A DNA stretch of 64,000 nucleotides from Trueperella pyogenes (GTDB lineage: Bacteria > Actinomycetota > Actinomycetes > Actinomycetales > Actinomycetaceae), in assembly GCF_900460345.1 (NCBI RefSeq), contig NZ_UHHW01000002.1:1922001-1986000 (forward strand). The letters run 5' to 3'. Under the pieces are notes generated by a model. It saw nothing but the letters and a program-made list of their open reading frames with translations. It was not told the DNA's origin and did no database searches. Below, piece after piece: positions 26,605 to 29,394 of this stretch (position 1 is the first letter of the stretch; each line of letters begins with the position of its first letter). The translations under genes were made by a program, and so were the position numbers.

Positions 26605-27166
26605 CTACAGGCATCGGCTGCCCGGCGAGTCGAGCTCTTCGCCCGCGCTACACATGGAGCATTCGGTAGGATCCCAAGACTCGGTTGGCAGCGCGAGCAA
26701 CGGGTAGAAGGGCGCGGCAAACTTCCAGTCCGTCTTGCGGTCGATAATTGAGACGACGCCGACCACCTCCCCGCCCGCGGACTTGACCAGCTCCTCCACT
26801 TCAGCCACAGACCCGCCGGTCGTCACCACATCCTCAACGATCAATACCTGAGCGCCAGCAGGAATGTGGAAGGAGCGGCGCAAGCGCATCTTGCCCTCCA
26901 CCCGCTCGGTAAACACGAAGCGCTTGTGCAGGGCCAGGGCCACCGCGAAACCGAAGAGCATGCCACCGCCGGGGAGGCGACCAGGTCCACGTCGAGTCCC
27001 GCGGGAAGGCGGCGCACGGCCTCCCGAGCGTCACGGTCACGTCCGGCGACTCCCCGCGCACACTGAATGTAGGTGTCCGAGTGCCGCTGGTCAGCGCGAA
27101 GTGTCCGTGGGCGATTGCGTCAGTGTCACGCAGCTGCGCCAGAATTTCGAGGTCCGTCAGTGCCAT
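26605..27166 (-). pseudogene. pyrE: Orotate phosphoribosyltransferase, frameshifted
   Basis: A start at 27166 (MALTDLEILAQLRD) follows GAAGGT. The reading frame is right up to PDVTVTLG, then the PyrE text continues in another frame (EAVRRLPAGLDVDLVASP) and shifts again to GGMLFGFAVALALHKRF. From there the C-terminal half is intact, with the PRPP-binding loop VLIVEDVVTTGGS. Residues around the second shift (SPxxGG) also appear lost. Two frameshifts within 200 bases should abolish the enzyme that makes OMP from orotate and PRPP. It follows the pyrF remnant by 10 bases. Confidence 0.85.
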
Positions 27167-27176
27167 TGTTCTACCT

Positions 27177-27854
27177 TCAAAGTACCGAATCGATGTCTGC
27201 GGCAATCGCCGCAAATGCCCCGGCGGGGTCTTCCGCCGCAGTGATTGGCCGACCAACCACCGCGTGGCTTGCTCCTCCGGCCACCGCCGCTGCGGGGGTC
27301 GCCACACGGGACTGGTCGCCAAGCTGTGCGCCTGGCGGCCTGACGCCAGGGGTGACGATGAGCGCCTGCGCGCCGAGTGCTCCACGCAGGTGAGGCGCCT
27401 CGAGCGGGGAACAGACGACGCCGTCGGCGCCCGCCGCCCAGGAGGCTCGCGCGAGTCCATCCACCTGGGCGGGCAGGTCACGCGCGACGCCGATCGACGT
27501 CAAAGTCACCTCGTCCATGGAGGTCAGGACGGTGACGGCCAGAATCGCGGTTGAGGTGGCGCCCGCGCTGGTCAGCCCCTCACGGGCGGCGCGCACCATG
27601 TCCGCGCCAAGTCCACCGAGGACGGCGCTGGCCTGGCGGACTTGGTGCGGAATATCGTGAAGCTTGAGGTCGAGGAATACTCGGAATCCGCGCGCTTTCA
27701 GCTGACTGACGATGCGGGGACCCGCCGCATAGAACAGCACCATGCCAACCTTGACCCATGCCCCAGCCGGCAGCGTGTCCGCGAGCGCGAGCGTGCGCCC
27801 CCAGAAGCCGGAGTTGGCGGACTTGGAGGCGAGGTGGTCCCGGTCGACCGGCGT
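27177..27854 (-). pseudogene. pyrF: OMP decarboxylase, truncated and internally deleted
   Basis: A group I (E. coli-like) orotidine-5'-phosphate decarboxylase remnant. Present: ALADTLPAGAWVKVGM, the catalytic FLDLKLHDIPHQVRQA, AVTVLTSM, GVVCSPLEA and the phosphate-site PGVRPPG and VVGRPIT. Missing: the start and the first strand with the substrate Asp (IVALD), and about a dozen residues around the VHASGG motif, since GADMV is followed directly by RAAREGL. The open frame is continuous with the upstream dihydroorotase remnant, so no own start codon remains. Loss of function is very likely. Confidence 0.85.
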
Positions 27855-28419
27855 CGTGCCCTCAGGATCGAACTCGAGGTCTTTCTCGTGGGCGGCGTGC
27901 GGGGCGTGATCGGTGGCGATGACGTCGATCGTCCCATCTGCCACACCGGCGGCGAGTGCGGCGGCGTCTTCGCTGGTGCGCAGCGGCGGGTTAACCTTGA
28001 GATAGGTTTCGTATTCGGTGGTGATGTCGTCCTCAGTGGGGAAGAGATGGTGCGGGGGCGCCTCGGCGGTGACATTCACCCCAGCCGCCTTTGCCGTGCG
28101 CACGGCCTGCACGCCTGCCGCAGTGGAAATATGGCCGATGTGCAGCCGCCGCGCGCGAGCCGGTGCGAATGTCCTCCTTGTGTTCCTGGCCGGGCTCGCG
28201 GAAGTGGACGTGCATATCGAACAGGCCTGGCAACACGATCTTGCCGGTCAGGTCGATGCGCTCGGCGTCGGCCCACTCGGCCTCGTTGACGACGCCGTCA
28301 GGCTCCCCCTGCGCGCCAGCTCCCGCAACTCTCACCACGCGGCCGTCACGGATGTAGATGTTGGCCACGGCGTCGAGACCCACCTGCGGGTCGATGACGC
28401 GGGCACCTTCAAGAATCTT
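27855..28419 (-). pseudogene. pyrC: Dihydroorotase, start lost and two large deletions
   Basis: The N-terminal part is clear: KILEGARVIDP directly overlaps the pyrB stop without any ATG/GTG/TTG in frame, then LPGLFDMHVHFREPGQEHKE with the metal-binding HxH. After DIRTGSRA roughly 150 residues are gone and the text resumes, out of frame, at HIGHISTAAGVQAVRTAK, then EAPPHHLFPTE and the metal ligand TDHAPH. The last 110 or so residues are also missing: the frame runs straight into pyrF. Only about 160 of the usual 430 residues remain. Confidence 0.88.
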
Positions 28420-29394
28420 AGGCGCTGAGCAGCTCCTTCGTAGTCAGAGTGGCGAGTTCCTCGGCGGAGTTCGCGAGGAGAAGTTCCATGAGTGCCATGC
28501 GGACGGCAACTCCAGAGGCCACCTGGTCAAACACACGGGCCGGGATCGAGTCCGCGACCTCCTGGGTGATTTCGACCCCACGGTTCATCGGACCCGGATG
28601 CATGATCACGGTGTGCGGGGCCAAGGACTCCATTCGGACGGCATTCAAACCCCAGAAGCGGGAATACTCTCGCAACGAGGGCAAGAGCTGAAGGCTGCCA
28701 AGACGCTCAAGCTGGATGCGCAGGAGGTAGACGACGTCGGCGCCGTCGAGAGCCTCTTCCACGCTCGAGGCGACTTCCACCCCAAACACGCCTGGGCGCG
28801 AGGGCAAGAATGCGGGAGGCCTAGAAACCACCACGCTGGCTCCGAGACGGCTCAGCACCCGACCGAGCGAACCTACCACCCGCGAGTGGGCGATCTCCCC
28901 GATAATCGCCACGCGCAACCCCTTGACACGGCCGAAGTTTTGACGGATCGTGTGCAGGTCGAGCAGGGCTTGGGTGGGGTGCTCATGCTTACCATCCCCG
29001 GCATTGATAACGCTGCCGCGAATGTTGCGTCGCACAATCTGTGGGCTGCCGGCGGCCCGCGCCCGAATCACCACCATGTCGGTGTCCATGGCGTCCAGGG
29101 TCTGAGCGGTATCGACGAGCGACTCGCCCTTCGTAATTGAGGAGGCTGAGCCAGAAATATTGACCACGTCGGCACCCAGGCGCTTGCCCGCTATCTCAAA
29201 GGACGTGCGGGTACGGGTGGAGGGCTCAAGGAAAAGATTGACGACTGTCTGCCCGCGCAAGGCCCCGTGCTTCTTTGCGGCCGGCCCCGCCGCGTTTGCG
29301 GCGATGTGCAGGTCTGCACGGTCGAAGATCGTCGTATATCCTCATCCGTGAGGTCGTCCATAGTTATGAGATGGCGAGTGGACAAGATGCTCAT
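28418..29394 (-). pseudogene. pyrB: Aspartate carbamoyltransferase with a 1-base frameshift near the start
   Basis: The body is almost intact: FLEPSTRTRTSFE, SSITKGESL, HEHPTQALLDLHT, HSRVVGSLGRVL and HPGPMNRGVEI are all present. The true start at 29394 (MSILSTRHLITMDDL) reads LTDEDIR and then shifts; dropping in one base at about 29335 would restore IFDRADLHIAANAAG and join the body. Without the 5' end only a TTG near 29260 could start translation, removing about 45 residues. It is the least damaged of the broken pyr genes, and therefore perhaps the most recent hit or a sequencing error. Confidence 0.75.

What the first reader, a model, noticed from the sequence alone, without database searches (positions are those of the whole stretch)
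26605..29394. De novo pyrimidine operon is decaying gene by gene while pyrR survives
Every enzyme gene in pyrB-pyrC-pyrF-pyrE carries a different lesion: a 1-base frameshift in pyrB; loss of the start, about 150 internal and 110 C-terminal residues in pyrC; loss of the start and the VHASGG block in pyrF; two frameshifts in pyrE. carA and carB, often between pyrC and pyrF, are absent. Neighbouring genes (dnaK, dmsA, mnh) are clean, so general sequencing error is unlikely. The cell should be a pyrimidine auxotroph.
Basis: partly seen in the sequence, partly recalled or inferred. Interest (0 to 1): 0.78.

Follow-up and report, generated by a model that had tools for sequence, protein, structure and literature searches.

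The report
Decaying pyrimidine pathway in Trueperella
This animal-associated bacterium, closest to Trueperella pyogenes, carries broken versions of the genes for making pyrimidines from scratch; near-identical broken versions are on record from other sequences while intact ones are also on record under the species name, so it probably has to take up uracil and shows a biosynthetic pathway in the middle of being lost.

Summary
pyrB, pyrC, pyrF and pyrE (window 26605-29394) are broken; the convergent pyrD (25518-26394) is broken too; pyrR is open, and 11 of 11 tested neighbour genes run in one frame. No intact pyrC, pyrD, pyrE, pyrF or carB was found elsewhere in the 99.99%-complete genome; the only other carbamoyltransferase is the ornithine enzyme of an arginine-deiminase operon. 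carAB lies at C2:1.066-1.0695 Mb, as in most relatives read, and is broken as well. Error is unlikely: large deletions dominate, and the same fused PyrC-PyrF remnant (54 member sequences) and cut-short PyrD (12 and 22) are catalogued with residue differences, beside intact T. pyogenes-labelled PyrB, PyrC and PyrF. Uracil salvage (upp, an NCS2 permease) is intact. Three of nine genus genomes lack pyrF and pyrC and apparently pyrR, so pyrR here looks transitional. Auxotrophy itself is untested. Pathway decay in host-associated bacteria is a known kind. Side find: CarA in Trueperella and in some members of three other Actinomycetaceae genera lacks its glutaminase domain.

The parts
29391..29912 (-). 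pyrR, intact (ATG at 29912; the open frame extends to 29975)
   Evidence: NCBIfam PyrR models up to 212.2 bits; one frame against T. pecoris and Trueperella sp. SUG403; pN/pS 0.14-0.21 against three relatives
28421..29388 (-). pyrB remnant: residues 1-18 in one frame (29335-29388), 19-323 in another (28421-29335)
   Evidence: with T. pyogenes PyrB P0001 (97.4% over 305 aa)
27786..28422 (-). pyrC remnant in three pieces: residues 2-94, 239-332 and 393-421 of 443
   Evidence: with T. pyogenes PyrC P0205; fragments below the family cut-off
27180..27800 (-). pyrF remnant: residues 20-237 of 237 without an 11-residue block holding the VHAAGG motif
   Evidence: with T. pyogenes PyrF P0122
27177..28112 (-). 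natural open frame that fuses the pyrC remnant to the pyrF remnant; the same fusion is catalogued as P0121
   Evidence: (304 of 308 residues identical)
26608..27166 (-). pyrE remnant in three frames
   Evidence: with T. pecoris PyrE (L113)
25518..26394 (+). pyrD remnant, convergent with the operon; frame ends after 170 aa, about 200 bp missing further on
   Evidence: nearly the same truncated product is catalogued as P0241 and P0242

Best explanation
The locus is a genuine pseudogene array: the former pyrR-pyrB-pyrC-pyrF-pyrE operon with convergent pyrD of a bacterium closest to Trueperella pyogenes. Once uracil or uridine came reliably from the animal host, selection on de novo UMP synthesis lapsed; small frame changes and larger deletions, some of them between short direct repeats, then broke pyrB, C, D, E, F and, most of a megabase away, carAB. 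Shown: the lesions, no intact copy found elsewhere, near-identical remnants in other catalogued sequences, intact versions in T. pyogenes-labelled proteins, intact upp and NCS2 permease. Inferred: the cell is a pyrimidine auxotroph living on salvage (permease, then Upp to UMP), relaxed selection is the cause, and pyrR is a not-yet-lost leftover.
For: Lesion map; 0 of 11 neighbour genes broken; no intact copy elsewhere, with all 14 control genomes ringing over the cut-off for PF02729, PF00215, PF01180, PF00156 and TIGR01369, and 14 ringing, 11 over the cut-off, for TIGR00857; same operon order intact in T. bernardiae, pyrR-pyrB-pyrC intact in SUG403, whose contig ends there; intact T. pyogenes-labelled PyrB, PyrC, PyrF; the same fused or cut-short remnants in other sequences: P0121 (54 members), P0241 (12), P0242 (22), P0003 (10); carB above cut-off in 8 of 9 genus genomes, all but this one; PMC9854608 (passages read) lists carB among genes with differential distribution in 19 T. 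pyogenes genomes; upp and permease intact; no PF00215 and no dihydroorotase over cut-off in 3 other of 9 genus genomes; gaps of 131, 186 and 201 bp lie at direct repeats of 7, 5 and 8 bases in the T. pecoris sequence.
Against: No growth test and no raw reads. PyrB (335.6 bits, cut-off 263) and PyrF (209.1, cut-off 193) remnants still pass curated cut-offs. The excess of amino-acid changes on this branch is weak: 16 against 8, two ambiguous set aside, p = 0.15. Not every large gap sits at a repeat: a 441-bp gap in pyrC, placed by the aligner at the edge of the stretch, and the 123-bp in-frame length difference in pyrR show 1 base each. Contig C3 of this assembly is an inverted foldback of a chromosomal locus, so the assembly is not flawless. 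For P0121, P0241 and P0242 the tool withholds sources and names, as for proteins that the window encodes, so their organisms were not seen; member counts are sequences, not strains.
Confidence: 0.88

Rival explanations
1. Sequencing or assembly error produced the broken frames.
For: The lesions of pyrB and pyrE are small frame changes; contig C3 of this assembly is a foldback with indels between its arms.
Against: Deletions of 100 to several hundred bases in pyrC, pyrD and carB are not read errors; 11 of 11 neighbours are clean; the same fused PyrC-PyrF and cut-short PyrD products occur with 4, 1 and 2 residue differences in other catalogued sequences.
Confidence: 0.03
2. The remnants still work: restart inside pyrB, the PyrC-PyrF fusion or frameshifting during translation give enough enzyme for prototrophy.
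For: PyrB from an internal start keeps the STRTRT stretch and passes its family cut-off; PyrF passes its cut-off.
Against: pyrC lacks more than 200 of 443 residues, pyrD about a fifth plus frame changes, pyrF its first 19 residues and the VHAAGG block, carB 112 residues; all enzymes of the pathway would have to be rescued.
Confidence: 0.04
3. (On pyrR only; compatible with the main explanation.) pyrR is kept because PyrR is still useful, as a second uracil phosphoribosyltransferase or as regulator of the permease.
For: PyrR is open and conserved (pN/pS 0.14-0.21); NCBIfam names the family bifunctional pyr operon regulator/uracil phosphoribosyltransferase.
Against: Upp is intact here; no hit that groups with PyrR in the pathway-less genomes G097, G110, G136 (judged by score and frame length; G136 is fragmented). 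No PyrR-binding RNA match was found, but the intact relatives' operons (L005, L113) gave none either, so that test has no power. The pN/pS values reflect mostly time before the decay.
Confidence: 0.25

Closest known systems
Intact pyrR-pyrB-pyrC-pyrF-pyrE operon with convergent pyrD, Trueperella bernardiae (L005)
   Same: Same gene order, same flanks (dnaK on one side, TetR-type gene and dms genes on the other)
   Different: Frames open there; five of six genes broken here
Gene loss in Actinomycetaceae (eLife 2017, PMC5404923; start of abstract in a listing and one passage seen)
   Same: Same family; loss of biosynthetic pathways in host-associated lineages with a retained protein
   Different: That abstract names histidine and tryptophan; 'pyrimidine' does not occur in its main text. 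Here pyrimidines, caught halfway
T. pyogenes comparative genomics of 19 strains (PMC9854608; passages seen)
   Same: Reports carB as differentially distributed among strains
   Different: The words pseudogene, auxotroph and uracil do not occur in its main text; pyrimidine genes are counted there as virulence-factor homologues

Membership tests
Aspartate carbamoyltransferase PyrB (NF002032) | Full-length open frame above cut-off | tested here: not met
   335.6 bits against 263, but residues 1-18 lie in another frame
Dihydroorotase PyrC (TIGR00857) | Score above 279.05 bits | tested here: not met
   Two fragments, 116 and 52.2 bits, in the whole genome
Orotidine decarboxylase PyrF (PF00215 / NF001273) | Complete domain with start and VHASGG-type motif (motif recalled) | tested here: not met
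   Cut-off passed, but residues 1-19 and the motif block are missing; single copy
Orotate phosphoribosyltransferase PyrE (TIGR01367) | Score above 150.25 bits in one frame | tested here: not met
   111.4 bits for the longest piece; three frames
Quinone-dependent dihydroorotate dehydrogenase PyrD (NF003652) | Score above 267 bits in one frame | tested here: not met
   134.4 and 59.1 bits for two pieces; no other copy
Carbamoyl-phosphate synthase large chain CarB (TIGR01369) | Score above 1027 bits | tested here: not met
   Four pieces, best 601.5 bits; 8 of 9 genus genomes pass, this one does not
PyrR | Complete PyrR frame above a curated cut-off | tested here: met
   209.8 bits for NF003549 (cut-off 138); 212.2 bits for NF003548, just under its cut-off of 218; one frame
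Glutamine-hydrolysing CPSase small subunit CarA (TIGR01368), for the short CarA of T. pecoris (side find) | Score above 307.35 bits, glutaminase domain present | tested here: not met
   101.1 bits, profile positions 2-131 of 361; PF00988 only
Pyrimidine auxotroph | No growth without uracil or another pyrimidine | not testable with these tools
   Needs culture

The most novel reading that the evidence does not exclude
T. pyogenes (or a pair of sister lineages under that name) holds prototrophic and auxotrophic forms side by side, caught while the enzyme genes at two places decay together. The pathway being lost began with an unusual carbamoyl-phosphate synthetase: the genus, and members of three further Actinomycetaceae genera, encode a CarA of about 130-210 aa that consists of the CPSase small-chain domain without the glutaminase domain, so that CPSase would run on free ammonia.
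Probability: 0.45. Interest if true: 0.6.

Novelty: new member of a known kind. Interest (0 to 1): 0.45.

Why it matters
A halfway state in which a whole pathway is broken by different lesions, intact forms are still on record under the same species name, and sister species show the finished loss, lets one order the steps of pathway loss (enzymes first, regulator later, carB kept in the pathway-less species). It also predicts a nutritional difference between strains of a livestock opportunist, and warns that annotation by score alone would call pyrB and pyrF present. The glutaminase-less CarA found on the way is a separate, testable lead.

Tried and rejected
Rejected: general assembly error (rival 1). 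Rejected: a second intact set elsewhere in the genome. Rejected: that carAB was deleted from the operon. PyrR-binding RNA: Rfam at gathering threshold over the whole window and at E <= 1 over window 25000-31500, L146, L005 and L113 gave none, but intact relatives gave none either, so nothing follows. Relaxed-selection count by branch (pyrB, pyrC and pyrF pieces only): direction right, not significant. Papers: ten searches; in the listings and the passages read I saw no report of T. pyogenes pyrimidine auxotrophy or of a glutaminase-less bacterial CarA; no paper was read whole, and most subscription journals are not held. Three papers were opened, by passages: PMC9854608, PMC5404923, PMC6022934 (the last on types of carbamoyl-phosphate synthetase). 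The pyrE row used a wrong frame of the T. bernardiae gene and is disregarded; pyrE rests. In one search, three of four full-length CarA references sought by motif were not found.

Full report
What is there. The nearest named loci in a PyrR search were Trueperella sp. SUG403 and T. bernardiae, both 76% (records of the window's own or a very near genome may be left out there). PyrB of the window is 97% identical to a protein labelled T. pyogenes (P0001, 69 member sequences), and the PyrC and PyrF remnants match T. pyogenes-labelled P0205 and P0122. G026 is T. pecoris, G079 T. bernardiae and G122 SUG403 by matching contig lengths. G026 is 84% identical to the window in the longest well-aligned stretch and 74.5-89.5% in the other pieces.

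Lesions. With intact T. pyogenes proteins for PyrB, PyrC and PyrF and T. pecoris proteins for the rest, each enzyme gene breaks differently: pyrB by one frame change after residue 18; pyrC by loss of residues 95-238 and 333-392, a missing end and no start codon at its usual place; pyrF by loss of residues 1-19 and of the 11-residue VHAAGG block; pyrE by two frame changes; pyrD by frame changes and a gap of about 200 bp. Gaps of 131, 186 and 201 bp coincide with direct repeats of 7, 5 and 8 bases in the T. pecoris sequence, which fits slipped pairing; the 33-bp gap has 3 bases, and a 441-bp gap in pyrC, which the aligner put at the edge of the stretch, has 1. The reference is only 75-80% identical there. 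Eleven of eleven neighbour genes tested (dnaJ, grpE, dnaK and others named by resemblance: hspR-like, tetR, NADH oxidase-like, dmsABC, an oligopeptidase, dmsD-like) run in one frame, and so does pyrR.

No other copy. Searches of the genome found one PF00215 place, only the window's pyrD pieces, only two pyrC pieces, one pyrE piece among eight PF00156 matches and, for PF02729, the window pyrB plus one more. That second one lies between arginine deiminase and carbamate kinase genes and scores as ornithine carbamoyltransferase.

carAB. In six of seven genus relatives read (G026, G079, G097, G110, G122, G136) carB lies beside nusB- and efp-like genes, not in a pyr operon; the seventh, G055, has pyrR-pyrB-pyrC-carA-carB-pyrF. 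Here carB is in four pieces with residues 101-212 missing and carA is frame-broken. 8 of 9 genus genomes have carB above cut-off; only this one fails. PMC9854608 (passages read) lists carB among genes of differential distribution in 19 T. pyogenes genomes, while calling pyrimidine-biosynthesis homologues detected in all; detection by homology would not see such lesions, since the PyrB and PyrF remnants here still pass curated cut-offs.

Not an artefact, not private. The open frame that fuses the pyrC and pyrF remnants is catalogued as a 308-aa protein, P0121, with 54 member sequences and 304 of 308 residues identical; the cut-short PyrD as P0241 (12 members) and P0242 (22), differing at 1 and 2 of 170 residues; the pyrB remnant from an internal start as P0003 (10), differing at 7 of 249. 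Not being identical to the window's own, they come from other sequences; for the first three the tool withholds sources and names, as it does for the window's own proteins, so their organisms were not seen. That P0003 begins where it does because of the same frame change is inferred. Intact PyrF (46 members), PyrC (65) and PyrB (69) are catalogued under T. pyogenes. Members are sequences, not strains, so no frequency is claimed.

Function. UMP can come from uracil: upp is intact (248.2 bits for TIGR01091, cut-off 208.35), and so is an NCS2 permease, closest to RutG and UraA models but below their cut-offs and just over the superfamily's. The arginine deiminase operon could supply carbamoyl phosphate, but nothing intact downstream was found to turn it into UMP. 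Pyrimidine auxotrophy is thus strongly predicted and untested. Selection: on the pyrB, pyrC and pyrF remnants 16 amino-acid changes fall on this branch and 8 on the intact T. pyogenes branch, two ambiguous ones set aside (p = 0.15), so relaxation is suggested only.

Stages in the genus. Of nine genus genomes, PF00215 is absent in three (G097, G110, G136), and the same three and this one lack a dihydroorotase over cut-off. In those three no PF00156 hit groups with PyrR, judged by score and frame length; G097 keeps a lone pyrE. G136 is a fragmented genome at 90% completeness. All three keep carB. The pattern suggests that pyrR goes after or with the enzymes and that here it is not yet gone.

Side find. 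In six Trueperella genomes CarA before carB is a frame of 132-164 aa with PF00988 only; G097 has none between its nusB-like gene and carB. Five genomes of three other family genera show the same (160-212 aa) with a full-length carB directly after (G023, G053, G095; G046; G117). The 11 proteins aligned keep the PH[IV]GN and DTRA stretches of the domain and stop before the amidotransferase. pN/pS is 0.28-0.51 in 10 genus pairs, where synonymous sites are near or at saturation in most, and 0.13 in one pair of another genus. 70 of 121 family genomes have CarA above the TIGR01368 cut-off, among them members of the same genera (G120 beside G023; G015 and G104 beside G046), so the short form is not the rule there and may have arisen more than once; not all of the other 51 were looked at. 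In a class-wide draw 129 of 138 genomes have PF00988, and all but four list a frame of 363 aa or more: this genome (133), G246 (176) and G287 (325), whose matches begin within 13 bases of a contig end, and G200 (201, incomplete match). An ammonia-dependent enzyme is the natural inference; a separate glutaminase subunit, or an early step of decay in some of them, is not excluded.

Verdict. The kind of event, pathway loss by pseudogenes in a host-associated bacterium, is known; its halfway state, two-place extent and coexistence with intact forms make it a good example.

Noticed in passing
L105:1109-1498, L106:4704-5114, L108:1103-1498, L107:1100-1498, L110:1091-1498, L111:1084-1494; L141:4867-5349, L142:4552-5034, L143, L144, L145: CarA reduced to the CPSase small-chain domain, without glutaminase domain, directly before full-length CarB in Trueperella and in members of three other Actinomycetaceae genera.
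   Followed up: partly
window 3382-3433, 26419-26470, 30844-30895: A dispersed palindromic repeat, three copies (six arms with up to 3 mismatches) in the window where 100 shuffles give none; one sits between pyrD and pyrE.
   Followed up: partly
L148 (G000:C3, 10338 bases) against L146: Contig C3 is an inverted foldback (99.0% identical arms of about 5 kb) of the chromosomal uracil-permease locus; probably an assembly artefact, possibly a real palindromic duplication.
   Followed up: partly
L149:3392-3961 (G097): A pathway-less genus member keeps a lone orotate phosphoribosyltransferase gene (125.6 bits, cut-off 106.8).
   Followed up: no
L094:7124-11574: Arginine deiminase operon: arginine deiminase, ornithine carbamoyltransferase, carbamate kinase and a further frame of 377 aa that looks like an amidinotransferase-type protein (not scored).
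   Followed up: no
window 55607-55710: TPP riboswitch on the - strand (57.4 bits, gathering score 54.3).
   Followed up: no
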